Shown: piece after piece, positions 35,826 to 58,363 of the stretch | Position numbering within the stretch: the stretch's first letter is position 1 | Layout: the number at the start of each line of letters is the position of its first letter | Source of the DNA: Perkinsus olseni | Taxonomy: Eukaryota > Perkinsozoa > Perkinsida > Perkinsidae | Length of the DNA stretch: 64,000 nucleotides | Reading direction: 5' to 3' | Assembly (NCBI GenBank): GCA_013115135.1 | Contig: JABANP010000011.1 | Coordinates: 62,001-126,000 of the forward strand | Made by a program: the position numbers and the translations under genes | Notes under the pieces: generated by a model | Seen by the model: only the letters and a program-made list of their open reading frames with translations | Database searches by the model: none | What the model was told of the DNA's origin: nothing

Positions 35826-37485
35826 ATGATAAAACGCTGTCCAAGCATCATACATCTTCACCTAGCTCTGGTCCTTACTGTACTCTGTGGCCTAGCCAGT
35901 GGAATGCGGACAGCTGCCGAGGTGCCGGGGCCTGGGGTATCGGTCGGTTCTGAAACACGCCTGGAACATCCAAGTGGGTGCGAGTGATTATATGGTTCCA
36001 GGAGGATGGCGTGATACTATCATTGCGAGGGAGCATTGTGCTGGTTCCCTTCAGCTGGACGATTCGTTCGAGCTCGGCTTGGAAATCGGCTCGGACGACG
36101 TGTCACTTGATGTCGCCCTTCTGAATAGCGTTGGAAAGGTAAGCTCGTCAGCGTCATTATCATCATTACGGTTTGATCATCAGGAAGGTGGTGGCACTGT
36201 AGCATCCCCTACAAGCTCGGTTACCTTCGGCAAACCCTTGGATGAGAGGGGTCCGCGTATTGTGGAGATGAGTTGCAAGCCCCGCATCCCCATCGGGCGT
36301 GAGGAGCAAGCCAAAGACCACCGGGCCTACTACTTCTTTCCCGGCGGAATAACGTAGGCTTGCGATGCAGCAGGGTCTGCCGTCTGGCCGGATGTTGCTG
36401 CTATGCTTGGGTCACCGGATTTGAGTGGTGTCAGATGGCTGGAGTTCGCCGATTTCTCGCTGGTTAAGTCCTTCTCTCGGCAGCTGGTGTCAACACTCGA
36501 CTCTGAACTTCGAGCGTATGCTGCTAATAGGACTTGTCAAAGGATGGCTGAAAGAGTAGATGAAGTGATGGCGGAAATGGCAGAGGACACGGAGATTCAC
36601 GACCTGGTAGAGGGTCTCCATCTGGAGGCTCGCTTAGACTAGACAATCGGCACTCCGAATCCTTCAGGACCCTCCTTTCTTCGAGCTCCACAATCCGTTC
36701 CCCATGGATGCTTCCAGGCCAGCCCATTTCACGGTACTCGGTCTTGTCTCGGCCAGCTTGCGGTCACCTGTCCCTTCTCAGTTGATGCCGCACAGGGTGC
36801 CAGAGCGCTTGAACGGTCATGAGGTGAACTTCGATCCCTTGATGGTGGGTGTCCGTGCGGATCACAATAGGGGTATGCTGCTCAGCCTCTCAGTTCATCC
36901 CTATGTTCTATGGAAACATCACGAGGTATCGGATGATGCTGAGGCGCCCCGACAGCGGGCCCGCCTACTACCTTGACTTCACACTGGAGGACTCCAAGCT
37001 GACGCTTGATGATATGGCATGCCCGAGGAGCCTTCCGAAAGACGGAGCTGGATGGAGAGAAATCGCGAAGGGCGAGTCTGTAGGAAGCTCTGGCTTCCTA
37101 CAACTTTCATACAGGAACCCAGTACGCTTAGAAGGTCTACCTTTGGCGTTGCATCTCGTCTTCCTTTGCAGGGTTTTTCCGGGGAGATGGCCGGAGTTCT
37201 CTTCCCTTGAGAGTGTCAAAAAAGTCACTATGACTCTACCTCACAACTTCAATCAATCTGATGTTGAGGCCGCCATCAAATGGCTCTTACTGGGTCTGGT
37301 CTACGAGACGACGAGAGATGTGGCGGACTCCTGCAGCATCGGCCGACACGCTCATGCACGAATTTTGCGTCCACATGGCTCAGAAACCGGAGAAGGAAGA
37401 GCCTGAGCATAGCCAGAGTGTTCAGACCCTCAAGGGCGTTCTCACCAATCTCAGGGATTCGATAAAAAGTCGGTTGAAAAACTGA
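35826..37485 (+). CDS. Array gene 1 (type A): predicted secreted two-unit protein
   Basis: First member of a paralogous family I do not recognise. The start at 35826 gives a clear signal peptide, LALVLTVLCGLASG, then MRTAAE at a GTGCCG donor. Unit 1 has TVASPTSSVTFGKP, IVEMSCKPRI and RAYYFFPGGIT (phase-2 donor at 36355), then WLEFADFSLVKSFSRQ and a helical stretch to TEIHDL. Unit 2 has DPPFFELHNPFPMDAS, VPERLNGHEVNFDPL, YYLDFTLEDSKLTLDDMACP and WPEFSSLESVKKVTMTLP, then DVEAAIKWLLLGLVYETT, and ends NLRDSIKSRLKN at 37485. Between VYETTRDVADS and ADTLMHEFCVHMAQ the conserved frame shifts by one near 37328-37345. A similar break may lie before 35990. Expected location is the secretory pathway or exterior. 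It pairs with genes 7 and 8, which share module order and a conserved 3' block. Confidence 0.65.
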
Positions 37486-37571
37486 GACCTTCCTGCGACT
37501 TGGTGCCCGTAGCCGTTTGCTGTTCTCTCCTTAGCAGAAGTATCCCTATGAACCTCATGCCACTTTACACG

Positions 37572-37630
37572 TGTTGTGATGTGCTGTCTGTGCATGTAAG
37601 CCCTCTCGAGTTGGGATCCTACGGAACTGC
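37572..37630 (+). repeat. Conserved 3' block of type A genes, copy 1
   Basis: Core TGTGATGTGCTGTCTGTGCA, then TGTAAGCCCTCTCGAGTT and a CTACGGAACT ending. Near-identical copies follow genes 7 and 8 at similar distances from the stop; no copy follows the type B genes. It probably belongs to the 3' UTR. Confidence 0.75.
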
Positions 37631-37890
37631 CGGTATCTTCATGAGACATATAGACATGCCCAATAAGAATATATTCATGAGTGGGGAAGTGAGCGGACTG
37701 TGGCACTGATGGTGTGTTGTTGTATTTCTCAGGCGTCTCCTTTGCTTGGGTGATCCCCTATGTAGTGGTACGGTCTAAGACCTAAGCTCCAGTCCCGTTA
37801 GCAACAGTGCTCGATTTAGTAAGCATTGCTCACGCCCGCTACTTAGTGAAGAGGAGAGAGCGCAGTAGGGGGGGGGGTCGGCGCCCGAAG

Positions 37891-38050
37891 TCTCATGTTG
37901 TCGTCATATTGTGGGTATCGTTGGTATCTTCAAGGATACTGGAAGGTATCCTATTCGAGTGCATTCCTTCTTCTCCCTCAATGTTGCACCCCATCAGCAC
38001 AACCCTCCTCCTCTTGGTGGCTGCTCATGGCTTGAAGAGTGTAGGTCCGG
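37891..38050 (+). repeat. Duplicated 5' block (copy 1) of array genes 2 and 9
   Basis: The 90 nt before the ATG at 37981 and the first exon and intron start are nearly the same as 55305-55465. Shared landmarks are TCTCATGTTGT, ATATTGTGGGTATCGTTGG, TCAAGGATACTGGAAGGTAT and GCTCATGGCTTGAAGAGTG. It probably includes the core promoter and 5' UTR of both genes. Confidence 0.75.
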
Positions 38051-40084
38051 GCAGCTTCGACTCGCCCTCCTCAGCCTCCGGATAGTGTGGCTGCTGTCAT
38101 TCCTCTCAATCGTCGCCGTGCAAGCAGCCCTTAAATCAAAAGCTTGCACACGTGCAGTGTTTCAGACGCTCCACCACCGACAAGGCCAGGCCGGTGATGA
38201 GACATTCCCAGTGAGTGGGGTTACGGATGGTACACGGCTAGCTTCCCTCCCTCATATGTATCAACAAGGAACGCATCGTCACATTCATTGAGGGCAGCGC
38301 GCGCCCCTCTGTGTGAAGCCGTAGTGTTCAGGGCGCCTGCCTCGTAACTCCTCCCAATGTTACCTCCCAGCCTCTATTCGGCAGCCTCGTCAGTGGTGGT
38401 CTAGGAAACACACTGAGGGTAGTAGTGCAACCAGCATGTGCGTTCCTATTCAACATTCTGCAGTACACGCCCGAGAACAGAGTAATCCTGGACGATCTTT
38501 ACGACGGGGCTCCCAAGCCATCTGTGCTCCTTCCCAGCAAGGTGGGCCTCACCAGCTCGTCGCTGAGTTGTCCTGCTGGGCTAGTCCATGGCTGCCAGGT
38601 TTACGGCTTCCTCAATGGTACGAACAAAGCCGCACTATTCGAGGACCCTGTACCGGGCAAGCCCCTCAAATTGGAGGAGATGAATTGTGAAGGGGAGATT
38701 CATGCATTCGCCGGAGGCAAGATGTGAGAAGTCGTGAAGGGTTGACTACCCACCTTGGACCCGGGGTGTGGGGGATTGGCAATAGACGACGTTCGCGCTG
38801 GTTGTCGAAAAGCCGTCAAAGTCTTTCGACAAAAAAGCCGAATTCGAGGCCTGGGCCACGAACTGAGCCTGACCCGGGCACTGTTGAGCGTGGCTTTAAG
38901 CGTGGCTTGGGCCGACTCAGAGCCCGCCCGGGCCACGGATCTTGAGCCCACCTTTATCTAGCCTATGATGTCTCACCTCTTCCTCCTCCTGTTCTCGAAG
39001 GAGATACTCCTTTGAGTACCTTCCAGCCCATTGCCCTTCGTTTTTCAGTGATTTCGACCTAGCCTTCCCTAGTTGGCCCGATCACGCTGGAGATATCAGC
39101 AAGTATCGGATTACGCAATCCAAAGCTTCCTCAGCGGCCTACTCTATACTCTACGCCGGTCTACTGGGAGCTGATATTACTAGAAGGATGGAGAACGGCG
39201 GGGGCAGAGAGAATAGAAAGTCGAGGCACAAGCGGCTAGGCTATAAGAAAGGGCGTCTGTCGCAGTTGGAGGAGGCCATCCGAGTGGAGCGATACATAGT
39301 CACTACGCTCTGTTCTCACATCACTAAGGTAGCAAAGTCATTTTACTATACTCCCATCAGTTGAAGGAGGTGATGTGCGGAAGTCTAGGCGTAGGATTTG
39401 GTCGTTGTTCTCAGGATCAGTCGCACATCGTAGCGAAAGGCAGAGAACGAAACCCGAGCTGTTATCCTGGTGAGGTTGGCCTTCGTTGCTTGACCAATTA
39501 TAGCTCGCCCACCAAGTCCACTTCGACCGTTGACTCTCTCAGGATTTGCCTGGAGCGTGGCAGTCTCCTGACTGGGCTCCTCTGCCCTTCACATTGGAAG
39601 TAAGTTCCGAAAGGACTCCTCAACCCTCCTCTGACTGAGTGGCCGCTGCAGGTCGCCTTTTCTGATGGATTCTATTCCGTGGACGGTTCCTCCACGGGCT
39701 TGCCAAACGCATCAGTTGTGCAGTTCGCCGTGATTGAGGGAAAGTTGACTATGGTCGATCTCAATTGCGGCGAACGAGGTATGCTAGGTTCGATCCGGGG
39801 AGAAGATCCGCCCGACACCTATCATGAGTAGGCTCTGGAACGGCTGACGCGATACTAAGCTCTTTTGTGTAGGTACTTTAGTGGAAGCTTTCCCGAGTAC
39901 CGCGCCCCTCGCTGGCTTCACTGAGTTCTCGTATAGCAACGACAATGTAAACGCGGCCATCAGCTGGATATACACTGGCTTGGTTAATATGAAGACTTCT
40001 CTGATGAAGGAGAAGAAGGAGGAGCCGAGGACGAACCTCAATGCTAACCAACTACTTGCCGGTATCCTTTGCAAGTACCCATAG
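37981..40084 (+). CDS. Array gene 2 (type B): predicted secreted two-unit protein
   Basis: The start at 37981 gives signal peptide MLHPISTTLLLLVAAHG, ending at a GTAGGT donor. Unit 1 contains RIVTFIEGSARPSV, NVTSQPLFGSLVSGGLGN, VILDDLYDGAPKPSVL, VYGFLNGTNKAALFED, LKLEEMNCEGEIHAFAGG, then DFDLAFPSWPDHAGDISKYR and AAYSILYAGLLGADITRR. Unit 2 contains GFYSVDGSSTGLPNASVV, LTMVDLNCGERG, AFPSTAPLAGFTEFSYSN and NVNAAISWIYTGLVN, ending LLAGILCKYP at 40084. Each unit follows the same order: short acidic exon, GxPxPSVL exon, beta-rich exon ending in a Cys and a glycine pair, and an AFPxW exon with a WLYxGL helix. Its first exon is almost the same as that of gene 9. No known domain is recognised; a secreted role is inferred from the leader. 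Confidence 0.65.
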
Positions 40085-40659: not shown

Positions 40660-42938
40660 ATGATACCGACGATCGATGGCAGCCCCCTCTTCGCCCTTGT
40701 CTTCCTTCTCCAGTACTCCTCCATCTGCGAAGCAACTTGGGGAATGACGAAAGAAGTAGGTTGGCCTTAGTAGCGGGACAGCCTATCGTGCGGTAACTGG
40801 CTGGCTGTGAGCCCTTGAGATGGCCCTGGCAAATCTGACCTAGGTACTTGTCGGAAGGCAGAAAGGAGAAAATCACTTCGAAGTAGACTAGACATGACTT
40901 CAAGATGTGGATATTGCGCAGCGTGAAGGTTTCAGAACTTGCGGGCCTACAAGACGGATCTGCCAAAGTTCGACGATCTCTTCGTATCCAAGTCGAGGGG
41001 GAGGTCAACATTGAAGGTGTGTTCGGGGAGAGTCTTCCAGTAGACAGGCTGCGTACCGATCCATAAGCTAATTTCTCGGTAAAGAAGTACTCTGTATCAT
41101 TATATGAAAGTCAGTGGAGGACTCAGCTAATTTCTCCTTTCTCTCCAGGCTAACGCCTTGAGTGAAGAACAGATTGAGGGTATGTTCAAGGGAGTCCCTA
41201 CAGCCTCTGTCATTACGGTAAGAGGGATAGTGTGCCTGCCTCTCATCATCTGCAGCATGCACGTCATACCCAAAATAGTGGTCTTATCATCAGTCCTCTC
41301 CTGTTATGAAGGCGACTAACTCTATGGTGAAGCTTGCTATCGACGAGAGTGGAGTTCTAGGCATCGCTGAGATAACTTGCCCCGTTATTGTTGGCGACGA
41401 CGGAGAGGAAGAGATCACCAGTGAATCGCGTATATTTATTGACAGGCCGAGGTGAGCAACAGCAGCTCCTGGAGGACCGAGCTCTCATGCTCCTCACTTT
41501 GCTTCGCGCATGTTGGGTCGTATTTTTAGCAATTTCCCTTTGGCCTTTCCCCACTGGAAGAGGGGGCGAGCGGGCAAGAAATACTCAATCAAGGATGGTG
41601 GGAATATGGCGGAGTTGAAGAGGCTCTTATCTACGTCGGCCTGCTGGGGGCAGACCTTCTGGCAAGGAATGGAGGCAGTGCTGTTGTTATAGAAGATCCT
41701 ACTTACGTGCGCCGGTACAAGCGGCAGCGATCTCTGAGCCGCGAGGAGCGCGATGCTGCTGCATCCTGGATTGACGAGTATATGCTTGGCAAGCTCTGCG
41801 AGATGTTCAAGGACCACTCCAAGGTGGGCTTCGACCGAAATGATAACGTCAGCCCCTTCGCCACCAGATACCAAATCACGTGAAGGCTGAGGACCTGGGG
41901 GACGGCCGTGCTCATTTCACAGTGGGGCCAAACCGCGCATTCAACTGCATTTCGGCTCGGAGTTTATGCGTCCCTTGACGATGGTCTCGAGTCCCGACAC
42001 AAGCCGCTGCCCCTTCATCGAGGGGAGCAGCGACTCACCTCCTCATTATATCCTATTGCTGCCTCGTACGATTGTAGTAATGCGCAAGAGAGAGGGAATT
42101 GTCTTGCCATGCTGGTGCTTCCCTTCATGGTACATGTCCTCGCTGACGGACTTCAACTGTGATCGTAGCAGTTGTATGCACATGAATGGATCGGGGCTAC
42201 AAATAATTTCCTCATACACGACTGAGCTCCCAGGATGCATTAACTCTCTCCATAGCTAGGTTTTCATATGCTACATGTCAATGGCAGGTCCCGCATCTCT
42301 TGCCCAAGTCCATCCTCGACAAACCTGTTGGGTTTGCCCCGGCACCCTCGACCTTGGATATCAGAGCCCCTAAGGGACAGAAGATCACCCGGCTACTCAC
42401 CAAAGTCTTCCCCTCTCGCCGTGTAAGGATGAAGCGAACAGCTCTGCCACTTTATGCTCTAACCCGTGAGACAACATCTCTATATGCTTTTCAGGCATCG
42501 GATTCTAGCCTGATGGTGACCTCTAAAGACTCGACTAGTATGGTGGTGTTCACTAGGAATCCTCGTTACAATGTGCTGACGGTTAAAAATGGTACCTGTC
42601 CCTACGTGAAATCGGCCGAGTGAGTTTGAAGCAACTGAGTGCAATCCGCACTCGTGGCTCGATCTGGAAGTGGCTTTCTTCTTAGGGTATTCCCTTGCCT
42701 CTTTCCTGACTATGAGTCCCTAACGGGCTTTACAGGAGCACAGTTCGAAGCGCCGCCTGGCAGGTTGAACTTCAACACTATCAGATGGCTTTATATTGGA
42801 CTGATGGGCCGAGTCAAGGAGCCGATAACGGGCTCTGCTAATGACTTATTTTTGAGGGAGCTTTGTAGATATATTGAGGAGCGACGAGCCATCAGGTTGA
42901 AGGAATTAGAGGATGAGCAGGAGGAAGATGCGGAGTAA
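40660..42938 (+). CDS. Array gene 3 (type B): two-unit protein with one frame break
   Basis: The start at 40660 (MIPTIDGSPLFALVFLLQY) gives a signal peptide ending CEATWGMTKE at a GTAGGT donor, matching gene 6 exon 1. Unit 1 has RQKGENHFE, YKTDLPKFDDLF, ALSEEQIEGMFKGVPTASV, MVKLAIDESGVLGIAEITCP and NFPLAFPHWKRGRAGKKYSI. Near 41605-41625 the frame must shift by one base to reach VEEALIYVGLLGADLLARN and WIDEYMLGKLCEMFKDHSK. Unit 2 has VKAEDLGDGRAHFT, LLPKSILDKPVGFAPAPS, SKDSTSMVVFTRNPRY, LFPDYESLTGFTGAQFEAPP and FNTIRWLYIGLMGRVKEP, ending DEQEEDAE at 42936-42938. It is a close duplicate of gene 6 across exons and parts of introns; the frame break is not shared with gene 6. Confidence 0.62.
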
Positions 42939-43090
42939 CATGAAGGCGTGTTGGTTTTCTGACTGATGTGTTAAATCATGATTCTCATTCCTCCATCATT
43001 AAGGTGTTCATATAACGGAAGAGGCTTGCGTTGATCGTTAATCCTTTCGCCAGCCTTCTCCCGTCTCTTTTCTGTCTACGTATTCCCTCG

Positions 43091-44850
43091 ATGATGTTGT
43101 TCCTCGTCACCGTCTGTTTCCTCGGCAGCAGCAGCGCTGGAACCACCACACTTGGCGAGGCGACCATCATATCGGTAAGGAGCTCTGTGTCAACTCTTCT
43201 TTTTACCTGCCGTCGGGCTCTGTTGAATAGCCGATGATGGTTGTGCTTCACCTTCAGAAAGTAGTACCCCCGTCGGATTGCTGTCCCTCCTTATTCTTCC
43301 CTGGTCGAGCGCAAGGCCTGGTCTGTCACATCACTGAGAGTAGGCAGGCCCATTGGAGTCTGGGGTGGATTCTGTATCCTCAGGCCGACGCCCTTAATAG
43401 CACCATGATGGATTCACTATTCCTGGGCGTTCCTTCGGTTTCGAACCTTAAGGTAGGCGTGGCGAACAATAGAGAAAGCGGTCTCCAGCTCGTTGTGTGC
43501 GGGCAATGCTCTCCTGTTATCTTCCACATCTTTTCTCAGGCGCGTGATACATTAACGCTATCATTGGATCAGCTGGTGAAGTTCTCCCAGAAGGACGGCC
43601 TGCTGTCGGTGACGGAGATGGTCTGTCCGATCGACCCCGAATGACAAGCAGTCCAAGTCTGCAGAATCAGGGACAATGGCCTACATATTCCCTCACCATT
43701 GGACGTAGGCCGTGGTATCTCTATGGCTTGTATGGCACTCGCAGCAGTGCATTACTAACTCAGGAACTTTCGCCTGAAGTTTCCCTCATTGGCGCCTTGT
43801 TCGAGCGAAGGGTACACGCTATTCGATACGCCTTCCCAGCGGCTCTGCAACTCTCACGACGGCCTTACGCCTCCTCTACATTGGTCTGCTCGGGCGAGAA
43901 GGCCGTTGATGATGAGGGCCTGTCGCTGAAGTTCACCCAGGAAGAGCCAGTCCAGGAGGAAAGCGGCACTTGGAATAGTGTGGTCAGTCTACAGGAGTTC
44001 ATCATCCGCAGACTCGTGCCGAATGTACAGGAATGAATATACGGTACGGCCTTTATAATCACTGTACGCTCGCAGTGAGGGATGTGTCTTGCCCTTCAGA
44101 GCCTGCCAACGATCGTCGTGGCGAAGAAGATTAACCGCGCCGCAGTGATGGCGGAAGATGCGACGGTCCTGGTGAGAACTCGCTGGGTGCTGCAATCTTG
44201 CGTTCAGCTGAGCAGGAGTTCCGTAATTGCTGCTGCCTTTTGGTTCATACTCCTCCTCATGATTTATATTCCTCAGGCCTTCCCGAGACCAAGTACCAAG
44301 AAATACGTTCCTGCCCTAGGGGTGAGTGAAAGTCTCTGTCCCACGCAGACTGGAAGTTGATTGATGGTATGCTTAGATGCACCATGCTCCTGCGAATCGT
44401 CCCTATAGAAAGAGCTTCAAGGTCATCTCAACAGTGATAGTGCCGAGGACCTGGATGCCCCAGTACAATAGTGTCACCTTCTGTCTCCAAGGAGATGGCA
44501 GGCTCGCGATATGCTCATTTTCCTGCGGAGGGGAGAAGACAGCGGCTGTGCTAGAGTAAGCCCTTGTCAACCATCCACGGGTATTATCCTCCTTCTTCTT
44601 CTACTTCAGTTATATACCAATACAACTGCCGCAGTACAAGAGCCTTCACCGCGTGACATGCATCAGTTACCGCCATGCTAAGGCAGACACAGTGGAAGCC
44701 TTCCTCGATTGGCTGTACGATGGTATCACCAGCAGCAGCAGCAATGGTCGGAATGGTGGTGACACTTCGAATGCTAATACAGTCTTCGTCAAGTACTTCT
44801 GTGACCGCTTGGCAAGCAATGAGGAGTCGTCCATGAAATTCCTAACATGA
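43091..44850 (+). CDS. Array gene 4 (type B): two-unit protein with frame breaks, possible pseudogene
   Basis: The start at 43091 gives signal peptide MMLFLVTVCFLGSSSAG. Unit 1 has ADALNSTMMDSLFLGVPSVS, LTLSLDQLVKFSQKDGLLSV and VTEMVCP, then NFRLKFPSLAPCSSEGYTLF. To continue with the conserved helix (ALRLLYIGLLGRE) a one-base shift is needed near 43855, and another near 43895 to reach DEGLSLKFTQEEPVQEESG and SLQEFIIRRLVPN. Unit 2 has KKINRAAVMAEDATVL, LPETKYQEIRSCPRG, CLQGDGRLAICSFSCGGEK, IQLPQYKSLHRVTCISYRH and TVEAFLDWLYDGITSSSS, ending ESSMKFLT at 44848-44850. Two breaks inside one exon make this the array member most likely to be degraded, unless the assembly is at fault. Confidence 0.55.
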
Positions 44851-45114
44851 TGTTTGCTGTTACGATGTGTCTTACTCCTTCCTCGGTGCAGCAGAGTTCC
44901 TTCTCTTCGCCCTGGACATCTGCGGTACACCAAGCCTCGCGTGATACCTCTCTCGATTCTTGTTAGGCTTTGCACGACTACGAGCAGAGTATGTCCACTG
45001 CTGGGGTAGTGGGTCCTGTTGGTAGGTTCTCCACGTGCTGATATGAGACATAACTCGCAGAGGGGTTCCTGACCTTTCCAAGATTCTCAGTTCAATTGCT
45101 CACAATCACTAAGA

Positions 45115-47438
45115 ATGATTGGATACCACACGTTCACCAATTTATACCTCGCCTTAACCGTCTTCGACTACGGTACCGTCGTGAAGGGGATGAGGACGGC
45201 TAAGGAGGTGGGAGGAGATAGAGCAGTCATCGTGACTGATACAACGTCGTATCCTCTCAGATGGTACAGCGGCAAAATGATGCGCGCCATGACACCTTCC
45301 TGGTGAGCTCATTTCATCGCCACCCCTCGGCACAGTCGCAGCCCTCCTCCTCGCCGCCTCCTCGCCAAACTCCCTCTATCTCTCTATAATCGATCAGTCT
45401 CGCTATCGTCAACTGCTTGGTATCGACTGCGTTTCAGGGTGCTACTGTCAATATACAGGATGCCGCTTCTGGGGCCCCCCAATTCAGCAGCCTTCTCGTA
45501 GATGGCCAGGAGAACGTCCTCAAGGTGATGTGCTCGCCATTCCCACGTTGTCTATCCTCCTAGATTTGACCCATCTTTACGGAGTTCTGTTTTCAGTCAA
45601 CTCCCGAAATCAAAGAAACACTGGACAACCTCTACAACGGGGCTCCTGAACCTAGCGTGCTGCAGGTAGTAGTATCCCTCAGCTGTTCGACGATGGTGCC
45701 TTCCCCATCCCAGCATGCCCAGCAGGTATACGGCTATCTGGAGAGCAGAGACGAATCCGCTCGCTTCCGAGATCCCAATCCGGCGGAAGCTCTCACATTA
45801 GTGGAGCTTGAGTGTGGGAAGAAGACTTATGTATACCCTGATGGGATCACGTAAGAGCTGTTGAAGGGGAGGTGTTTAATCGGTCGTATGCAAAACGGTG
45901 TAGAGGGATTTCATACGTCCGCCACTTCCAGGAAAAGCCTTCTCTCTTCCGTTGTAGCTGGCAATTGAGCTGCGCCGGTGTTTGCTCGATAAAGTCGCCA
46001 TTCCCCTTCAAATACTGTGGTTGTCACCGCCTAGGTTCGCCATAGGTGTTTGGGACAAATGACGGTACTCCTCTTCACCTTGTTTATCTCCTCAGTGAAT
46101 TCGAACTAGCCTTTCCTAGCTGGCCCGAACGTGCTGGAAATATTTCCAAATATCGAATCATGCAATCCGAAGCCCCCTCAGCGGCCTATGGCATGCTCTA
46201 CGCCGGTCTACTGGGAGCTGGCATCACTAGGAGAATGGAAATGGGGACGCTCGAAAAGTTGAGACCAAGGTCCCAGATGTTCGCGAAACGACGCCAGTCC
46301 CAGCTGCTTCAGCAGGAGCAGCGAGCGGAGAGATATATAACGAAGATGCTTTGTTCTCACCCCCCAAAGGTGCCTGCCGCACATTGCTGCCCTTGGAGGC
46401 TTCGAGACCCCACTGATGCTACTCTCAGGCCCCCCATGCTCGTATAGTTGTCGAGGAAGAAGCCGCAGCGCGAGGGGTTGTCTCGGTGAGATTCGGTCGA
46501 ATTACGGTACTCGTGAAGCTGACGTCAGACTAAGGCGATTGATCCGCTTCTCTTGTGAACAGGACCGAGTGTTGTTCAGGAACTACCGGACAAATTGCGA
46601 GAGGACGTATTGAGGTCCCCGGACACTGACTGGGCTCCCAAGGCCGGCTCATTAGAGGTGAGCGGCCTCCAGTCAAGCCTCGAGGGTCATGTTATTACTT
46701 CAATCGAGTTGTAGTTATGATTGTAGCCCGATGCCTGCTTTAATCTGACTTAATCTGAGTTTGTCCATACAGCTGCCGACTTTCTCGACATAGGATTTGA
46801 GTAGAGCTCGGAAATCGTAGCGTCCGTGAGGATGTTCGCTGATTATAGTGTAGCTCTCTCGCTGGAATCAAGTTGTATGAGATGGAGCGATTGCCATACT
46901 TATCATCCACTCAGATACAGAGACATCAGAAGCATTATCCTAATGCGCCACTCAACTTCACCACCGACATCCATATTGTACAGGCAGCATCGTCGTCCAG
47001 CCAGCAAAGCAAAGCGAGATTGTCTTTCGCCCATTTCATGCTGTCCAGAGGGAGTTTGTTGATGATTAATCGTCGTTGTGGTGATCTCACCGGCGACCTT
47101 CGTTATCCGCTCGACAGCAAGGATGCCGATTCTTACATCGATTATGATACGTACGTACCTGAACGATTTTTGTCATCAGCGATTCTCTTTCGGTCAGGCA
47201 CTTCGCTGGTAGCTTCCCTCAGTTCCCCTCTCTTCGAGGCTTTACCGATTTCTCTTACAAACTTGAGAATGTTGAGGCTGCTATGAACTGGCTATACACA
47301 GGATTTGTAAACAAGGAGACGAGCTTCATGAAAACAGGAAACATGGAACCGAGAACAGACCTCAGCGCCAATCAGATATTTATGGCCTCCCTCTGCCACT
47401 ACCCTATGGATGAGGATGAGACCATCACGTACCTTTGA
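45115..47438 (+). CDS. Array gene 5 (type B): predicted secreted two-unit protein
   Basis: The start at 45115 (MIGYHTFTNLYLALTVFDYG) resembles a leader and ends GMRTAKE at a GTGGGA donor, as in gene 1. Unit 1 has GATVNIQDAASGAPQFSSLL, TLDNLYNGAPEPSVL, VYGYLESRDESARF, TLVELECGKKTYVYPDGIT (phase-2 donor) and TEFELAFPSWPERAGNISKY, then AAYGMLYAGLLGAGITRR. Unit 2 has HARIVVEEEAAARGVVS, VVQELPDKLREDVLRSPD, KARLSFAHFMLSRG, INRRCGDLTGDLRYPLD, FAGSFPQFPSLRGFTDFSYK and ENVEAAMNWLYTGFVNKE, ending DEDETITYL with TGA at 47436-47438. Unit 1 is closest to that of gene 2, and the last exon is closest to the last exon of gene 2. No frame break was seen in the parts I read. Confidence 0.65.
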
Positions 47439-47856: not shown

Positions 47857-49832
47857 ATGGTGTCATCCATCACCGGAATATCCCTCTTCGTATGTCTAGC
47901 CTTCGACTACTCCTTAGTCTGTGAAGCCACCTACGGTTTGACAAGGGAAGTAGGTCATCATAGATGGGAGTGTCTCCCACGAACTAATTGCTGATATCGT
48001 ATTGTATTGTTCTGCACCCCAATGCAGCGCTTGTTTTCTGTCCTAGGTTATTGAGAGGAAGAGGAAAGGAGAGAACCAATTCAAAGTAGAGACTAGTACG
48101 CGTCCTGGCCATTAGAGTCACTTCGTCGCTCAGGATATTCGTGCGCGCAAGACAGATTTGCCATCGTTCGACGACGTTCTTGGTCCCGCAGTGAGGGGAC
48201 AATCGACGTTGAAGGTCAGTTGAGCATTCTGTCGGCCCTTGACAGGCTGAGAGAGGGGATGTATGGCCCAATCGCTGAGTAGATTCGGCGGTGCGTTACA
48301 CTCTCTCTCTTTCTCCTTTCTCTCCAGGCCAACGCCTTGAGTGAAGAGCAGATTGAGGGTATGTTCAAGGGAGTCCCCACAGCTTCGGTCATTACGGTAA
48401 GATGGTATCTACGAGTCCACGCCTCCCCGAACTTCCCACTCCGTCAACATAGTCCCTTATCAATCATCCTGTCATCTTCAGTCATCGCCTATCATGAAGG
48501 CGTCCGACTCCATGGTGAAGCTGTCCGTTGACAAGAACGGGCTGTTGGGGATCGATGAGATGACCTGTCCTGAGGCCGTCATCGACGAGGATGGCGAGGA
48601 GTCCTACAACATCCAATCCCGTATTTTTATTGACACTCCGAAGTGAGCTCACCCTCTGCATCAGCAAGGCGTACTCTGCTTGCTAACTTTGTCAGGAAGT
48701 TCGTATTAGCCTTCCCTCACTGGGAGAGCGGTCGGGTTTTGAAGAGCTACGCAATCAGGACCGATGGGGATATGGCGAAGTCTAAGAGGCTTCTCTACGC
48801 CGGCTTGCTGGGAGATTATATCCTGGCCAAGAACGACAAGAGTGTTGCCATCGAGGAAGATGTTCAATTTCGACAGTTCAAGCGTCAGCGAACTATGGGA
48901 AATGATGAGCGCAATGCTACTGTAGCCTTTATTGACCAGTTCATGATTGATAAGATTTGTAAAACGTACAAGGTGATGTCTAAGGTCAGTAGCCTACAGG
49001 GACTCAGTCATCCTCTCCTGGATGGTGTAATACCCTCCGCGCTGTTTTTAGGCCTACAATCATGTAAAGGCTGAGGACTTCGACGAGAATCGTGTACTTT
49101 TCACGGTGAGATCGAGTAACTCTGCATCATCCGCCAGCGGGTTACTGCAGGTCCCGGATGTCCTGCCGAAGTCCCTTCTCAATAACCCTGTAGGGTTCGC
49201 TCCTCCAGCTTCCTCATTGGAGATCACCGTTCCCAATGGCCGACGGATGGCACGCTCGGGAGCGCAGGCCGCCCTGTCTGCACTTGTAGGACGCGTCACA
49301 TATCCCAGCATCGCTCTGAGGCCTCTTCTTCGCTACTATTAGTTTATCCTCCCTTGCAGTTATCGGGTTCCGAGATGTTGGTGGGACATCTAAAGACTCG
49401 CCTGGTGACTCTAAGGTGGTGTTCACTAGGAACCCGGTCAACAAGAAGCTTATGGTGAAGGAAGCCTCGTGCCCTGGTTTGAAGTTTGCCGCGTAAGTCA
49501 GTGGATACATACTAGTTTGGTTTTCACGTGTTCTCTCGCTCAGGATTTTCCCCGCCGTTTTCCCCGACTATGAATCTTTGACAGGGTTTAGCAAGTCCCT
49601 CTTCGAAGCCCCACCCGGCAAGCACAATTCCAACGCTATTAGATGGCTTTATATCGGTCTGATGCGCCGAGTCAAGGAGCCAACATCCAGCTCCGCCAAT
49701 GACATCTTCTTGAAAGAGCTGTGCAAGTACGGTGAGGAACGTAGTGCCGCCGTGGAGAAGCGAAAGGAAGACGAGAGAGAGGAGAACTCTATCGAGACCA
49801 CAACGCCAGAAGTATTCGACACGAGGCTCTGA
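47857..49832 (+). CDS. Array gene 6 (type B): predicted secreted two-unit protein
   Basis: The best-preserved example of the family. The start at 47857 gives MVSSITGISLFVCLAFDYSL, then CEATYGLTRE at a GTAGGT donor. Unit 1: RKGENQFK, DIRARKTDLPSFDDVLG, ALSEEQIEGMFKGVPTASV (48330-48397), MVKLSVDKNGLLGIDEMTCP, IFIDTPK, KFVLAFPHWESGRVLKSY and KRLLYAGLLGDYILAKND, ending MIDKICKTYK. Unit 2: HVKAEDFDENRVLFT, VLPKSLLNNPVGFAPPAS, GGTSKDSPGDSKVVFTRN, KEASCPGLKFAA, VFPDYESLTGFSKSLFEAPP and NAIRWLYIGLMRRVKEP, ending PEVFDTRL at 49830-49832. All modules stay in frame with ordinary GT-AG introns, so this copy shows that the family architecture is functional in principle. The two halves have the same module order, indicating an internal duplication. 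Confidence 0.72.
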
Positions 49833-50262: not shown

Positions 50263-52360
50263 ATGTTTTGCCGCTGCCGCCGGCTTCACTTAGTCGGCTC
50301 CTTGATTGCGTCCTGTTGCACGACTGTTGTGTATTGCAGCACCCACAGTAGCGTCAGCAGTACTGGTCAAGTAAGTTCAACCGCTGGCGATAACAACTCC
50401 TACCTTCCGAGGCCGCCGCCGCCATCGATCACCTTACCATCTCATGGGACGTCACTCTCTCAGGACAAGATGGCCGAACTCGACGCTGCGTTTAGCTTTA
50501 TGCAAGACATCGCCCGAAGCCTCAAGAACGTAGCGCCGTCAGCACCCAAGAAGCCACCACCAACACTAACGCGCCCGAAGCCACCTCCAACGTCAGCTAC
50601 ACCCCCGGTCCCCCCTCCGCCATATGAACCTTCGAAGCCTCTTGCACCATTCAAAGCTCCGAAGGGCCCCCCGCCTCAGAAGGTGGAGTCTGAGCTCAGC
50701 TCGCCAGCCTACGCACGGTCCCCACCTCTTTCCTGATACTCAGACACCAAGGGTCTTCTTAGGAACTGACGATCAGTTGTTTGGAATATATCGTATTTGG
50801 GGACTCACTGAGGTACATTTGGGCAGATCGTATTTGCAGAGAAGAAGATACACGAGTTGCCTGTCAGGAGGGCGGCAGCATTAACTCCCCCCGCAGCAGA
50901 GTAACCTTCGTCAGGGAGTCTGCAGAAAATCACCCGCGCATACTGGAAATGAGCTGTCCACCTCGTGTCCGGCGTTCGGAGACTAACCCTCCTCAAGAAA
51001 GTGGCGCTGAAGAAGCGACTGAGCGAGCCTATTACTTCTTCCCGGGTGGAGGGCTATCGTGAGCTTCGGTGGTCGCTATCGCCGCGGTCGGCCGATGGGA
51101 ATTTTCAGGATCCGAAACGTTACCGATCTGGATTTGGAGCGAGATTTTTTCCATGAAAGCCTCGCCAAGAACAAGGAGGCGCAGGAGCCTGCAGCGGATA
51201 GTCTCTGCCAAAGGATCACCGAAAGCGTGCAGAATATGACCTCCGCTCGCAGCCTTGCGCAAGATTGGAAAAATCATGAGAAGGTCAGTAGGAGTTGCAT
51301 AGTCAGGATAATCACGAGCCGCTACTACTACTACTACTAGGCAGATTCACGGCCTCCTCCCCCTTTCTCTTGCCGCTCAATATGATGCTCTCTCAGAGTC
51401 CTCCATTCTTCGAGCTTCATAATCAATATCCCATAGGCTCCCAACACCTCAGCCCATTATACCGTAATACTCAATGCTACCATCGGTCAAATGCCCTCTT
51501 GGACTCGTATACCTTTTGGCCTTTGTTGAGTACTCCTGCAGTTCCTGTCGCGAGCCGTTCCCGAGACCTTGGTCGACTTTCAAGAGGAAGCAGTTAACAT
51601 CACAAACATGAAGGTAGTAACTCTGGCCTTTGGTCTTTTCCGTCTTTCAATTGTCTTCAAAGCTGTCGCATTACTCTCAGTTCCTTCAAGGAACTGCCGG
51701 TGAGAAGAAAACCTATCGAGGTGAAGTCTGAGCCGTCCCCAGAGGGCGTCGTCTATTCCCTCCAATTCGCTGTTGAGGACACCAAGCTCATACTTGAGAA
51801 GATGGTATGTCCGAAGAGGAGCTCGGAGGGTGGGGATAATCAGGGAGAATTGACCCGAGGGAAGAAGAAGAAAAAGTCTTCTAAGAAGAAGGTCAAGGAA
51901 AGTCCGGCTTCTTACTCCTTCAAGCAAGGAATAGAGTAGGAATTACCACCTTCATGCTACAGCTTCTCTCCACGGTTATTAGTATCGCAGGTCATTCCCA
52001 TCCTCCTGGCTTGAGTTCCTCTCTATCTCGCACTTGAAGAAGTTCACTGTGTCTCTGCCGGACGGAAAAAACGAAAAAATCTTCCAGGACGTGAAAGCAG
52101 CGGCCCAGTGGCTCTTAGTCGGTGCGATCCACGAGACCACTTATCTACTACAAACCTCTGAACATCTCCTGCAAGATGAGGATATCACCTATCTCACCAC
52201 TTTCTACTCACCTGGAGATATTCTCGTCCGCCGATTCTGCTATGAGTTCGCTACGCCAGAGGCAGAAGATAAACAAGAAACGGATACTGAGCCTCCCAAA
52301 CTGAGCAGGTTTAGTACTCTTAGAAAGTCGATATCTAAGCGCCTCAGGCTTCAAGAATGA
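50263..52360 (+). CDS. Array gene 7 (type A): two-unit protein with proline-rich insert
   Basis: The start at 50263 (MFCRCRRLHLVGSLIASCC) gives a leader or signal anchor ending STGQ at a GTAAGT donor. The next exon (from about 50464) reads MAELDAAFSFMQDIARSLKN and then a proline-rich stretch (50540-50670; PKKPPPTLTRPKPPP and PVPPPPYEPSKP) not seen in genes 1 or 8. Unit 1 continues VFLGTDDQLFGIYRIWGLTE, GSINSPRSRVTFVRES, ILEMSCPPRV and RAYYFFPGGGLS (phase-2 donor), then IRNVTDLDLERDFFHESLA. Unit 2 has SPPFFELHNQYPIGS, FLSRAVPETLVDFQEEAVN, VVYSLQFAVEDTKLILEKMV (followed by CPK), a Lys/Ser-rich stretch, KKFTVSLPDGKNEKIFQDVK and AAAQWLLVGAIHETT. It ends SKRLRLQE at 52358-52360. No frame break was seen. 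Confidence 0.66.
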
Positions 52361-52440
52361 TCATCAAACGTGCAGCTCATGATAAATTCGTGTTCTCTCC
52401 TTGACAGAGGTATCTTTATGAATATGCTCTCCCTTTACAT

Positions 52441-52500
52441 GTATTGTGATGTGCTGTCCGTGCATGTAAGCCCTCTCGAGTTGGAATACTACGGAACTGC
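52441..52500 (+). repeat. Conserved 3' block of type A genes, copy 2
   Basis: Nearly identical to 37572-37630, including TGCATGTAAGCCCTCTCGAG followed by TACGGAACTGC. It lies about 80 nt past the stop of gene 7. The similarity extends weakly upstream through a TGTTCTCTCCTTGACAGAGG-like stretch. Confidence 0.75.
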
Positions 52501-52678
52501 CGTCAACTCCGACCAGTCCTTCGTACTCCCTTACACATGCTCAGCAAGAGGGTATTCATCACAGTAGTGTACACGACCCTCACGACTGTTGTCAACTGTT
52601 CCACCGAAGATGAAGTAAGCTAGCCCTGAGGGGCGCAATGGACGATGATGGTGAATGATCGAATACATTACGCTTGGA

Positions 52679-54302
52679 ATGTTCAACAGTCTCTTCGTCT
52701 CTTCATGGTGTCTATCATTTGCGCTAGTAGCTGCAGTAGCTTACCTGCAAGCCCATCCGCTCGGGCCTCTCCATCCATCCCACCCTGTCTCGTTATTTCA
52801 GGAACCTAGTGACTCGTTTGATAGAAGCTCATCCCGAATGTATAATGCTTGGGGAATTGGTGAGGTAGACAGGGGAGTAACACTCGCATAGCAAGAGAAG
52901 TATGTTCATCATGAATAGCTTTTCAGGAGGGCGGAAGCATAGAATCTCCCCGGAGCAGAGTAACCTTGGTGAGAGACGCCGGAGAAGAGCATCCGCGTAT
53001 GCTGGAGATGAGTTGTCCACCCTCGTATCCAGAAAGGCGACCTCCGCGAACGAACGTGCCTACTACTTCTTCCCGGCCGAAGGGCTCTCGTGAGTTTCTC
53101 CTATCGTTGTCCTCGAGGCCAGAGTGCTGGAAGCGTGCTCGAGTGTTTCAGAATGCTCGATGTTTATGATGCCGCTTTGAATGAAACCCTAGTCGAGAAG
53201 CTCGATAAAGCGGGGAAGAAATTCCGGGGGAGAAGCTTCGGATGAGCTGTGTCGATGGATGGCCGAAAAAGGTTCAGAGTCTCAAACTTAGCCGAAAGGG
53301 TCAATATACTGATAATGACAAAGAGACGGTGAGAAGGTCGGCGTGATCAGACGCCTTAATGGGTGTATTGTGGGCGACCACTGTGCATGTCGTCGTGGTC
53401 GTGGTCTCAGGGCCCCCCCTTCTTCGAGCTCCACAGTCGGTTCCCCATGGACACTTCCGCACAACCTACTTATACTGTAAGTCTCAGTAGTCGTTGTCTT
53501 TACTCCAATCGTGAGCTAGATCCGGCTAGAACCTGTGCGTGCCTTCACTGCAGTTCTTCTCAAGAACAGTCCCCGAGTACGTGTATGGTAGGGAAGTTGA
53601 CCTGGGTGGACCCTACAAGGTAAGCAGTGAAGCGCCCCGCTTATTAGTGCAATATATTCTTGCTGTCCTCTCCATTATTCTCAGTTCATTCTTGCAACGG
53701 TTGAGGGCGGGACGCGGTATCGAGTTAAGAATGAGACATACCCTCTAGGGTATTCCGTCTCCCTTGAATTCACGGTCAAGGACTCCGAACTACAGCTCCA
53801 GAAGCTGGTGTGTCCGAAAGTGACGTTGGTAAAAGAGAGAGAGGTGGTGAAGAGGGATAAGACTTATGAATTCCCTCAAGGCATCGCGTAGGACTCATCA
53901 GCACCTTGTCGTATACACTCGATCCCCCCCATCAAATCCTTTAGGTCGTTCCCATCGAGATGGCCTGCGTTCCCAACTCTCCAACACGTTAAGGAGGTGT
54001 CCGTGAGACTCCCTGTCGATTCGCCAATGTCCGATGTGAATTTTCTCGACGTCAAGGCAGCCACCAAATGGCTTCTCATTGGTGGCATCTATGACACGGT
54101 TTATGAAATGGAGCATGGGGGCCTGGGAGATGAGCAGACCTCCTACCTCATGCATTTCACCTCTGCAGTTGAGTTGTTCGCACGCCAACTCTGTTTCGCT
54201 TTCGCTGGTGAGCCGAAAGGCAGCGGAATTTTCGGTGGGGCGTTCAAGAGCTTCAAAAGGATGATGCAGGGGACCTCTCGGAGAGATAAGAGCCCGGAGT
54301 GA
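52679..54302 (+). CDS. Array gene 8 (type A): two-unit protein with one frame break
   Basis: The start at 52679 gives signal peptide MFNSLFVSSWCLSFALVAAV; an in-frame ATG at 52655 is an alternative. Unit 1 has EPSDSFDRSSSRMYNAWGI, GSIESPRSRVTLVRDAG and MLEMSCPPSYPERRPP, then a one-base shift near 53030-53050 is needed to reach NERAYYFFPAEGLS (phase-2 donor). Next come MLDVYDAALNETLVEKLDK, GPPFFELHSRFPMDTS, VPEYVYGREVDLGGPYK, YSVSLEFTVKDSELQLQKLV, the beta exon end YEFPQGIA, WPAFPTLQHVKEVSVRLP and DVKAATKWLLIGGIYDTV. It ends GTSRRDKSPE with TGA at 54300-54302. It is most similar to gene 7 but lacks the proline-rich insert. Confidence 0.63.
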
Positions 54303-54367
54303 AAAGCTCAAGCGTTATTTCATGTTCTCTCCTTAACAGATGTATATCCATGAATATCCTGCCACAT

Positions 54368-54424
54368 GTATTGTGATGTGTTGTTCGTGCATGTAAGCCC
54401 TCTCGAGTTCGGATACTACGCAAC
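54368..54424 (+). repeat. Conserved 3' block of type A genes, copy 3
   Basis: Carries TTGTGATGTGTTGTTCGTGC, TGTAAGCCCTCTCGAGTTC and a diverged CTACGCAACT. It follows the stop of gene 8 by about 65 nt. Confidence 0.72.
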
Positions 54425-55304
54425 TACCGTTAAGTTTGACTACACCATTTTCACGTCAGAGTTAAAGGACGTCAGTTCAGATGAAACAAAAGAAGCTTCT
54501 AAATATTCTTAATTCTAACGATTCCAAATAATTTTCGAGAAAATTATTCGGAATTATGAAGCAGAAGACGGTAACTTTAATTAAAAAAATTCTAGCCCTG
54601 AATTGGAGAATAAGTTCTACTTCGAGAATAATCTCAATTTGAAGCCGCGCGCTACGCGGGGCGTCACTTGCTAGATACACAGGAGCGACGCCGTGATGGA
54701 CTCGGACTGCAGTTTTTGTCTACCTCTGCACCTCTCAAGACGTGTCCCGGTTGTTCTTTGAGCCGGTTGCAAAACTTCGTCGCGAAGTGGTCGGCCAGCG
54801 ATGGTCTTCATTAGATACTTAACGGACATGGGTTATTCCACCATGTGCCATGACTGCGGCTTAACAGGGGATAGGGACACCGCAAGAGTCCACACAAGAG
54901 CGTTATCCATGGTAGTTCCATGTCGAGCAGCATGCTTGGGGAATCGAGTAAGAGAGCAAGTGACCAAGGTATTTGGTCAACATTCAACAAGGAGCGATGC
55001 GAGCCCATCACTAGGCCGATGATTCATAATCCCTTCCTTCCGAAAGCCCCTCTAGGCTTATGTCTATGTTAGACAGTCTATCGACTCTGTAACGCCACAG
55101 TGGTCAATGCTGGAAGGCCACGAGGATGAAAGGTTCAAGTGGGAGGATCTCGAGAGCACACGGGTCTCGGAGCCGCCTGCGTTCTGCGAAAGAAGCAGCT
55201 GTTTGACGTAGAAATATAGTTCTTATTGAAATCGACTATATCTCCTTTTTTCTATCATTGTATGGTTCGGTGATAGGGAGTGAGCGCGACGGGTGCCCAA
55301 GTCG
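54425..55304. other. Intergenic region with AT-rich hairpin segment
   Basis: The longest gap inside the array. Between about 54480 and 54640 the base composition is clearly more AT-rich than the surroundings, and 54521-54554 forms an inverted repeat with 16-nt arms (one mismatch) around a GA loop. A GC-rich palindrome (CCGCG-CGCTA-CGCGG) follows at 54645-54659. The frames at 54801-55022 on either strand show no domain. An old insertion is possible. Confidence 0.45.
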
Positions 55305-55465
55305 GCACCCAAGTCTCATGTTGTTGTCATATTGTGGGTATCGTTGGCATCTTCAAGGATACTGGAAGGTATTCGATTCGAGTGTATTCCTTCCTCCCTC
55401 AATGTTGCACTTCATCACCCCAACCCTCTTCCTCCTGGTGACTGCTCATGGCTTGAAGAGTGTAG
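55305..55465 (+). repeat. Duplicated 5' block (copy 2) of array genes 2 and 9
   Basis: Copy of 37891-38050; see that entry. It covers the probable promoter, ATG 55402 and the signal-peptide exon of gene 9. Confidence 0.75.
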
Positions 55466-58363
55466 GTCGGGCGGCTTCGACTCGCCCTCCCCGACTTCAT
55501 TCCGATAGTACAGCAAGACACTATGACAAGACGATTTCCATCTCAGGCGAGGCATAGTACACGAGGAGTATCTTCCTTCGAGCTGCGCGGGAAGCAGCAC
55601 CCAGTAAGTCTTCGTCCTCAGTCCGCGATCGGACGACTCATCACCTTCGCAACTCGTGCCGCACGAAACTAGCTTGACGAGTCGCCAGCGATAGGCCTTT
55701 TTTCGTTTTCAGACGCCTAGACCGAGAGCGAGATCACTCCCGGATGTGACCAAGGTAGCCCATGCCGACTAGCATCCCAACCGTTCCAGGAATGTATGTG
55801 CTATTAGCCGTCTTCGCCCCAACGCGATGAAAGACAAAGAAACAGCTCTCCAGACACTGAGTACGAAGAGGCGCTCAAAGAATTCTACAAATTCGAAGAA
55901 GAGTTGAAGAGGACCTCTGTGAGATGCTCTCGGGAATCGTTTCCCTCGATGGTTCCTCATGATTACCATTTTGTCAGAGACGAGATTCTTACACCGATGC
56001 CGACAACGAGAGGGATGGAAGCGCAGTCCACGGCGACCGATACGGAACGTGACCACTCACTTTCGGGAGAGACTGAAGATGACTTACTGGAAGAAATTGG
56101 TGAATCATACGGCGAGGTGGGCTGCTGCTGCAGCAGGAGGAGAAGGAGTCGAATCGAATGGGCCTAGCGCATGACGATGCTGATATGCACGCTTCTCTCG
56201 TAGGAGCATCTTCCGGGACATGAAGGGCTGATAAGATCACTCTCTAAGGAGGATCTGCGAGAGTTGGATCCCTTATCCAAGAACGTGAGCTCAACTGTCC
56301 TCTGATACGTCCCGACAATACCTCTCATCAGGGCGGTACCTCTGATAGCGAGGAAAGCAGTATTGGCTCTGGGGTAGTAGACCACTCCTCCTCCTCCTCC
56401 TGCTAGCCTGGACTTGCAAATCGTCGTCCACTGCGTCTGCTGTCTATAGACGCTATAGACTAATCTTGTGTCATCTCAGAGCCCCGCCGGTGACTCTACC
56501 ATGAACAATGGCTTTTGGATCTCTTCGTCTGAGGTATGTTCCATCGCTTGTGCGGCATTGCTCTCTTTCCTCTCACAAATTCTTAATCTCCTCGCTCTCG
56601 GCCACCGGCCTGCCAGCAGCCGCTGAATGAATTAAAGATGTTTTTCTCGATCAGGGATTGGATACGGATACAACCCGCAGTGGCCAATCATCCCCGAAGA
56701 CGAAACCGAATGTAAGTATTCACAACGACTCTTCCCCTAGCGGACCTTCGTCTCAGTTAATACGTCACCCAAGTCAAGAGCCCATGCTGCCTTACAGATC
56801 ACTCTTAGTACCAGGAAAGGGGAATACTTTGAAGGTAGTCCGGTAGGAGCAGCAGCGTAGTCGATGCAGCGTCTCAGAGCGGCGTCTTCGCTCCACCATC
56901 ATTAATGGATCCAAAGAAGACTGAGGTAGCGGTTGTTCGTCCAACATCAACAACAATGCACCGGAAAGGCGTTACTGAATAACCCTTCTTCCGAGTCGCT
57001 TCGACTGACTGATGTGTCCCTCAGGAACCACCGAACGACTTCGCTATGGAGGATTACATGATACGCTTCACCAGGCCGAGAGTTGGACAGGAGCTTGGGA
57101 TTGAGGAGTTGAAGTGTCCTCGTAGGAGCCAAGGCACTTTCACGGACTCCTTCGGCTTCGTATTCCCTGAAGGCCTTCGGTGAGTTCAAGACGTTTCCGC
57201 TGAAAACATCTCTGGTAGTGATGAACCGTTTTCGTGCCGTGCAGTCGTTTCAAGATGAGTTTTCCCGACTTCGACGGAGCACCTGCCCAGGAGCAAGTTT
57301 ACACCATACAGCAACAGACCAATCTTTTATCGGAGTCCTTGCGGCTACTTTACATCGGTACTGCTGCCAATCCAGAAGAGGCGAGGAAGCAGCCAGTAGA
57401 GGACACTACAGCTCTACTGCAACCCATAATGAAGGCTCTGTGTAGAATGGTACAAGATGATATCGATTCACATAAGTATGGTGCTGAATACAAGCTCTTG
57501 AAGGTGCGTACAACATAGCTGGTCAAAGGAAATTACCGTTGCTCAGGGCGTTCCTTTCATGAACATTGAGTACTTTACCGCTGAGAGTGGTAAGCGTCCA
57601 ACAGTGAGGGTAGTAGGCCAAGCAGCGACCAATGATACACCTTATCAACACACTCTCAGTTCACATCGGAGAAATTGCCGCCCGCGATGCTTCTCGCCAA
57701 CTCCGTTGACCCTACCAGTTTGAAGGTAGCAGGGTGCGATCATCTCGCACACCTGGTCCCTATGGTAGTCAACCTTGTCATCCTTAGGTAAACGTTCAAA
57801 GCCCCAAGAAGGGTCACCCGTTGTACGTGGTGAAGAATAAGGACTACTCTGTGGCGTTCGTCGCTCATAACAGTCGTTTGAGGGTCAACGCCATGTCCTG
57901 CCCTGGTGATCGCCACACCAAGAAGATCAGCTTCGCCAAGAAATCGGCAAAACCTGCGTAATGAACTCCTGGGTCGCGACTCGCCTTGAAACGAGCCTCA
58001 CACGTTTCCGATATCAGGTTGATGCCAGCTGAGTGGAAGCAGTTTGATCAGCTGAAGTCGCTCGGTGCATTGGAGTTCTCGATCATCGGTGATGCTGAGA
58101 GGAAAGTGATAGAAGCCGCAATCCGTTGGGTGTATGCTGGACTACCTCATATGGTTGAAGAGCCGACTGTGGCAAAGAAGAAGCAGAGAAGGTCGTTGAA
58201 TGGTGATACTGCGAATGGTATGTTTATTCAAACGTTTTGCCGAAGCCAACTGGTACCAGAGGAAGACGAACAGTCGAAGGACAGTGAGCCCAAGAAGAAA
58301 ACGGGAAGCTTTCATGCGGGCAAGATGTTCAAAAGGCTTCTCAGCAGGCCGAGTAGTGATTGA
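55402..58363 (+). CDS. Array gene 9 (type B): predicted secreted multi-unit protein
   Basis: The start at 55402 gives signal peptide MLHFITPTLFLLVTAHG, ending at a GTAGGT donor as in gene 2. Several short exons follow: RGVSSFELRGKQHP, PRPRARSLPDVTK, TEYEEALKEFYKFEEEL, SPAGDSTMNNGFWISSSE, GLDTDTTRSGQSSPKTKPN, and ITLSTRKGEYF. Recognisable unit modules then appear: EPPNDFAMEDYMIRFTRPRV, IEELKCPRRSQ, FGFVFPEGLR, FPDFDGAPAQEQVYTIQQQ and LSESLRLLYIGTAANPEE. The last unit has VPFMNIEYFTAES, EKLPPAMLLANSVDPTSLK, LYVVKNKDYSVAFVAHNS, AMSCPGDRHTKK, EWKQFDQLKSLGALEFSI and VIEAAIRWVYAGLPHMVEEP. It ends KMFKRLLSRPSSD at 58361-58363. It is longer and more diverged than its paralogues, and the early exons are the least certain. 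Confidence 0.6.

What the first reader, a model, noticed from the sequence alone, without database searches (positions are those of the whole stretch)
35826..58363. Nine-gene tandem array of an unrecognised secreted two-unit protein family
Nine consecutive plus-strand genes share a leader exon and a repeated unit. The unit runs: a short exon, a GxPxxSVL exon, a beta-rich exon with a conserved Cys (MxCP or LxCG) often ending YYFFPGG or PDGIT, and an exon with AFPxW followed by a VEAAIRWLYxGL helix and an LC-containing helix. Most genes carry the unit twice. I know no named family with this signature. Tandem secreted paralogues in a protist often serve host interaction or surface coating, but that is inference.
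Basis: partly seen in the sequence, partly recalled or inferred. Interest (0 to 1): 0.88.

Follow-up and report, generated by a model that had tools for sequence, protein, structure and literature searches.

The report
Clam parasite's tandem two-domain gene family
Nine neighbouring genes in the clam parasite Perkinsus olseni, plus a tenth elsewhere in its genome, encode an undescribed family of apparently secreted proteins built from two related domains; their role is still unknown.

Summary
The array is real. The window is Perkinsus olseni; its contig has the length of the contig of FOZ60_000820, which is gene 3. Nine plus-strand genes (35826-58363) each begin with a hydrophobic leader exon and carry a repeated unit: a beta exon with an invariant Cys, then a helical exon with a near-invariant second Cys. 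The helical exon is detected in 15 of 18 expected units; the first units of genes 1, 7 and 8 are a divergent variant placed by position. Profiles of first and second units match each other (E 1e-6, far above 100 shuffles) and form separate clades, so one internal duplication preceded the gene duplications. Synonymous change exceeds non-synonymous in 8 of 9 exon pairs. A tenth gene lies on contig C112; thirteen database proteins, all P. olseni, belong to the family. Pfam, NCBIfam, PHROGs and PDB searches gave no credible match, and the structure models are too weak to assign a fold. Secretion rests on hydropathy; host interaction is a guess. Four window units change reading frame in this assembly. 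I rate it a new, so far P. olseni-restricted member of a known kind (lineage-specific secreted tandem family), not a new mechanism.

The parts
35826..37485 (+). Gene 1: leader 35826-35921; divergent unit 1 (beta exon 36184-36353, YYFFPGG); unit 2 beta exon 36894-37075 and helical exon from 37172. The frame changes between the two helices of unit 2.
37981..40084 (+). Gene 2: leader 37981-38040; unit 1 e3 38599-38723, e4 39049-39328; unit 2 e3 39652-39778, e4 39873-40084
40660..42938 (+). Gene 3 (NCBI FOZ60_000820, P0002): leader 40660-40755; e1 40936-41016; e2 41149-41217; e3 from 41294; unit 1 e4 read in two frames in this assembly; unit 2 e3 42495-42619, e4 42686-42938
43091..44850 (+). Gene 4: leader 43091-43174; e2 43384-43452; unit 1 helical exon around 43778-43906, frame changes after helix 1; unit 2 e3 within 44377-44556 (weak, E 1.7), e4 44610-44850
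45115..47438 (+). Gene 5: leader 45115-45207; e1 45438-45524; e2 45597-45665; e3 45726-45850; e4 46096-46369; unit 2 e2 from 46580, e3 ending 47150, e4 47198-47438
47857..49832 (+). Gene 6: leader 47857-47949; e1 48134-48214; e2 48328-48396; e3 48482-48642; e4 48696-48984; unit 2 e1 49052-49105, e2 from 49151, e3 near 49386-49492, e4 49544-49832
50263..52360 (+). Gene 7: leader 50263-50370; proline-rich exon within 50464-50706; divergent unit 1 around 50865-51283; unit 2 e3 51691-51935, e4 51991-52360
52537..54302 (+). Gene 8: leader placed at 52537 by comparing with the start of P0007 by eye (finder was given 52679); divergent unit 1 around 52924-53090, whose beta exon changes frame; unit 2 e3 53685-53887, e4 53945-54302
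55402..58363 (+). Gene 9: leader 55402-55461; long acidic/serine-rich insert exons about 55547-56711; unit 1 e3 57052-57179, e4 57245-57503; unit 2 e1 57547-57609, e2 57672-57725, e3 57788-57957, e4 58018-58363
   Evidence: P0008

Best explanation
A Perkinsus olseni gene family, so far seen in no other species, encoding proteins with a cleavable-looking hydrophobic leader and two homologous domains. Shown: gene anatomy, paired homologous units, purifying selection, presence in other isolates, a tenth copy elsewhere. Inferred: the leader sends the protein into the secretory pathway; the two conserved cysteines of each unit form one disulphide that ties the beta half to the second helix; the pair of domains acts as a non-enzymatic extracellular binding module (surface or released), diversified by tandem duplication. 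A host-facing role in the clam is the most likely single use, but is not tested.
For: Nine-gene anatomy. Hydrophobic leader in 10 of 10 genes looked at, best 9-residue Kyte-Doolittle mean 1.63-3.02 (gene 8 and C112 leaders were picked with the help of database proteins). Exactly two Cys in 13 of the 14 units typed through both exons, three of these rows taken from database proteins P0003 and P0010; the fourteenth has three. Unit 1 against unit 2 profiles: hhalign score 44.5, probability 91%, E 1e-6, against a maximum of 16.5 in 100 column shuffles. Tree: units 1 and 2 on separate sides of one branch, support 94/98, 92% of 200 bootstrap trees. pN < pS in at least 99% of bootstraps for 8 of 9 exon pairs. 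Thirteen database proteins over three searches, all labelled P. olseni. Tenth gene on C112.
Against: No experimental or transcript evidence was available. Leaders were judged by hydropathy alone. Both structure models are poor (mean pLDDT 53.0 and 41.8), so the disulphide and the fold are untested. Four window units and one C112 unit change frame in this assembly, so some copies may be dead. Nothing seen links the genes to the host. Restriction to P. olseni rests on word-seeded searches that scored only about 8000 candidates each time. The ninth exon pair (leaders of genes 2 and 9) shows no excess of synonymous change.
Confidence: 0.45

Rival explanations
1. The proteins are structural: components of the thick wall of Perkinsus resting stages or zoosporangia, or of a secretory compartment, not host-facing.
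For: Same data as the best explanation: secretory-type leaders, Cys pairs, small tandem family. Gene 7 has a proline-rich stretch and gene 9 an acidic serine-rich insert, as some wall proteins do (recalled). Sequence alone does not separate the two readings.
Against: The other seven genes showed no such stretch to the eye; no dedicated test was run.
Confidence: 0.25
2. A decaying array: most copies are pseudogenes and the family has little present function.
For: Reading frame changes in units 1.2, 3.1, 4.1 and 8.1 and in the C112 copy of this assembly.
Against: Synonymous change exceeds non-synonymous in 8 of 9 exon pairs. Database proteins from other isolates read through without a break over unit 3.1 (P0003), the unit 8.1 region (P0007) and the C112 gene (P0010). 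So these breaks are polymorphic, assembly errors or unseen introns; I could not tell which.
Confidence: 0.18
3. The unit is a diverged BTB/POZ-type domain (the ...LYTG... helix and LC helix look similar), so the proteins are adaptors.
For: Recalled resemblance of VEAAIRWLYTGL and the LC helix to BTB.
Against: hhalign of the unit profile against five BTB sequences from the PDB: probability 0.09%, score 9.7; 16 of 100 column shuffles score as high. PF00651 finds two places in the genome, C357 and C175, neither in the array. No BTB among Pfam hits of the members scanned.
Confidence: 0.03

Closest known systems
Lineage-specific tandem secreted paralogue families of protist and fungal parasites (general kind, recalled)
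   Same: Short hydrophobic leader exon, tandem copies, fast sequence divergence, no outside relatives found
   Different: Two-unit architecture with a mostly fixed exon-phase pattern and one Cys pair per unit; no host-interaction evidence
P. olseni hypothetical proteins FOZ60_000820, FOL46_007064, FOZ62_011034 and FOZ62_011035
   Same: These are family members: gene 3 itself and relatives of genes 5-6, 9 and 8
   Different: Deposited as uncharacterised, and some models fuse neighbouring genes or cut an exon; their names do not mark them as one family
BTB/POZ domain (Pfam PF00651)
   Same: Superficial LYxG helix and a following L.C helix
   Different: No profile similarity above shuffled controls

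Membership tests
P. olseni two-unit leader family (this report) | Hydrophobic leader exon ending in phase 0 | tested here: met
   9 of 9 window genes and the C112 gene have a hydrophobic leader. The phase-0 end is modelled for 8 of 9 window genes; for gene 8 the models from other starts did not give it, and the leader at 52537 and that of C112 were only read by eye
P. olseni two-unit leader family (this report) | Two homologous e3+e4 units with Cys in each exon | tested here: met
   e4 in 15 of 18 window units, e3 in 14 of 18; unit 1 and unit 2 profiles match, E 1e-6; units 1.1, 7.1 and 8.1 are not recovered by profile
BTB/POZ (PF00651) | Profile similarity to BTB | tested here: not met
   hhalign score 9.7 against a small profile of five BTB sequences, 16 of 100 shuffles equal or better; no BTB Pfam hit
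Any Pfam-A family | Score above the curated cut-off | tested here: not met
   10 exons, 3 proteins and the members of A1, A2 and A6 scanned. Best hits are below cut-off or marginal: Med14 E 0.0042 (only gene 3 records P0002 and P0003), Ribosomal_S7 E 0.018 (unit 6.2), NOPS 0.08, BpuSI_N 0.082, Microp_apicomplexa_10 0.22, one member each (cut-offs were shown only for Med14 and Ribosomal_S7)
Any fold in the PDB | Confident structural match | tested here: inconclusive
Secreted proteins | Signal peptide by a trained predictor | not testable with these tools
   Hydropathy only
Secreted effectors of the clam host | Presence at the host interface or in secretions | not tested
   No expression or proteomic data in the tools used

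The most novel reading that the evidence does not exclude
A new protein domain (one beta-rich half and two helices joined by a single disulphide), born within the Perkinsus lineage and used as a fixed pair, forms a small variable family through which P. olseni contacts its clam host.
Probability: 0.25. Interest if true: 0.65.

Novelty: new member of a known kind. Interest (0 to 1): 0.45.

Why it matters
The two literature searches that asked for secreted or expanded Perkinsus gene families showed none about this one (13 of 13 papers listed, 15 of 756 listed; titles and abstract starts only). A defined family with profiles, exon anatomy and relatives in other isolates gives candidates for what the parasite displays or releases in clams, and its reading-frame differences between isolates can be checked directly. 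The two-unit layout with a single ancient internal duplication is a clean case of a lineage-restricted domain being amplified.

Tried and rejected
Gene finding: runs 12, 13 and 22 of my own finder gave unusable models., corrected by eye with database proteins, replaced them; one search was run at two exon penalties, and the looser one adds spurious tiny exons.

A first genome search with a DNA pattern for VEAAIRW found 0 exact matches.

Possible further genomic copies on C135, C235, C797 and C290: rejected, no e3/e4 profile match better than E 0.081 (e3) and 4.5 (e4).

Programmed frameshifting: the frame changes in 1.2, 4.1 and C112 lie in the same linker between helices, and Perkinsus mitochondrial genes do use frameshifts (PMC9550989, passages seen). 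I set it aside for these nuclear genes because unbroken forms exist in other isolates for C112, 3.1 and 8.1; for 1.2 and 4.1 I have no other isolate to compare.

Restriction to P. olseni: no tool here held the P. marinus or P. chesapeaki genomes for direct search, so absence there is not shown.
Full report
What and where. The window is from Perkinsus olseni: the database hits to the array are P. olseni hypothetical proteins, and the contig holding the window (C13, 359,303 bp) has the same length as the contig of FOZ60_000820, which reads gene 3. The genome held here is 61.5 Mb in 968 contigs.

Checking the observation. The first runs of a home-made gene finder failed. With an intron-length cost it found genes 2 and 6 unaided. 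Models of genes 3, 4, 7 and 8 were partly wrong and were corrected by eye. The finder has no preference for intron phase, yet phases repeat: leader, e1 and e2 end mostly in phase 0, and in the better model of each gene the e3/e4 intron is phase 2 in 13 of the 14 units where it is joined. Annotated proteins from this and other isolates show many of the same joins, though some fuse neighbouring genes (P0001 joins genes 5 and 6; P0006 joins genes 6 and 7).

Significance. HMMs of e3 and e4 made from 13 units recover e4 in 15 of 18 expected window units and e3 in 14 of 18. Thirteen of these units were in the training set. The untrained ones are gene 4 (e4 E 6.3e-6 and 5.5e-7; e3 0.012 and 1.7 for its first and second unit) and the C112 gene (e3 E 9.8e-8 and 0.013; e4 0.014 and 0.012). 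Unrelated sequence gives nothing better than E 2.2. First units of genes 1, 7 and 8 score at chance (e3 E 1.5 to 6.8, no e4 hit).

The two units are homologous. The profile of six first units aligned to the profile of nine second units gives hhalign score 44.5, probability 91% and E 1e-6; 100 column-shuffled controls average 9.3 with a maximum of 16.5. In a tree of 16 units (six first, ten second) the two sets fall on either side of one branch (94/98; 92% of 200 bootstrap trees). So the internal duplication probably came first and whole genes were copied later. Pairs in the tree are genes 2 and 5, genes 3 and 6 (both units), genes 7 and 8 with 1 (second units), and gene 9 with C112 (first units 99/96; their second units do not pair with support). 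The order suggests that the block of genes 2-3 was copied to give 5-6. The leader regions of genes 2 and 9 are 90-92% identical over about 166 bases, which suggests a recent exchange.

Selection. In 8 of 9 paralogous exon pairs pN is below pS in at least 99% of bootstraps; the exception is the 20-codon leader pair of genes 2 and 9 (0.21). The pairs come from only a few gene pairs and are not independent, and dS is saturated in 4 of 9.

Other copies. Single-protein searches of the genome found one further gene, on C112 at 366.9-369.0 kb, minus strand, with two units and 37% identity to gene 9. Weak hits elsewhere were rejected. Copy numbers are lower bounds. Across three searches of 5.8 billion proteins, 13 proteins were found, all P. 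olseni, none with a precomputed Pfam domain; each search scored only about 8000 candidates. FOZ62_011034 and _011035 both have a contig of 17,786 bp and correspond to genes 9 and 8, so part of the array seems kept in another isolate.

Relation to known families. No Pfam hit above a cut-off was shown among the members scanned, none in NCBIfam (73), a chance PHROGs hit at E 0.42 (84), and no PDB sequence better than E 0.99. Two AlphaFold2 jobs gave weak models (mean pLDDT 53.0 with 19 sequences; 41.8 with 9 sequences). In the better parts the units show several strands followed by two helices. No structure match is meaningful. A resemblance to BTB domains was tested and failed.

How it may work (inferred). 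Hydrophobic leaders in all ten genes and exactly two cysteines in 13 of 14 complete units (the fourteenth has three) fit a secreted protein with one disulphide per unit. No catalytic motif or transmembrane segment after the leader was noticed, but neither was tested with a dedicated tool. A paired, non-enzymatic binding module is the simplest reading; contact with the clam host is plausible and untested.

Frame changes. In this assembly the frame is interrupted in units 1.2, 3.1, 4.1 and 8.1 and in the second unit of the C112 gene. Unbroken forms exist in other isolates for 3.1 (P0003), the 8.1 region (P0007) and C112 (P0010). Whether these are assembly errors, alleles, unseen introns or dead copies was not resolved.

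Papers. Searches were read as listings with the start of abstracts only; PMC9550989 as passages. None described this family in what I saw.

Noticed in passing
window 37885-38050 and 55308-55471: The upstream and leader regions of genes 2 and 9 are 90-92% identical although their units are distant, which suggests recent gene conversion or a shared promoter block.
   Followed up: partly
window 37521-37632, 52391-52502, 54318-54429: A repeated block of 112 nt lies just after the stop codons of genes 1, 7 and 8 (85% and 62% identity to the first), a possible shared 3' region.
   Followed up: no
window 1-35000 and 59000-64000: Neighbouring genes include a CitMHS/Na-sulphate symporter-type transporter (22464-24197), a prenyltransferase (28172-28888), a helicase C-terminal domain (32508-33002) and an RRM protein (2839-3744 minus). 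A 566-aa open frame at 12197-13894 minus has no Pfam hit.
   Followed up: partly
window 43778-43906 and 37172-37403; C112 unit 2: Three of the five frame changes lie in the same linker between the two helices of a unit; coincidence, shared mutation-prone sequence, unseen introns and assembly error were not separated.
   Followed up: partly
window 55547-56711: Gene 9 has long extra exons rich in acidic residues and serine that were not seen in the other window genes; they are also present in P0008 and P0013 from other isolates.
   Followed up: no
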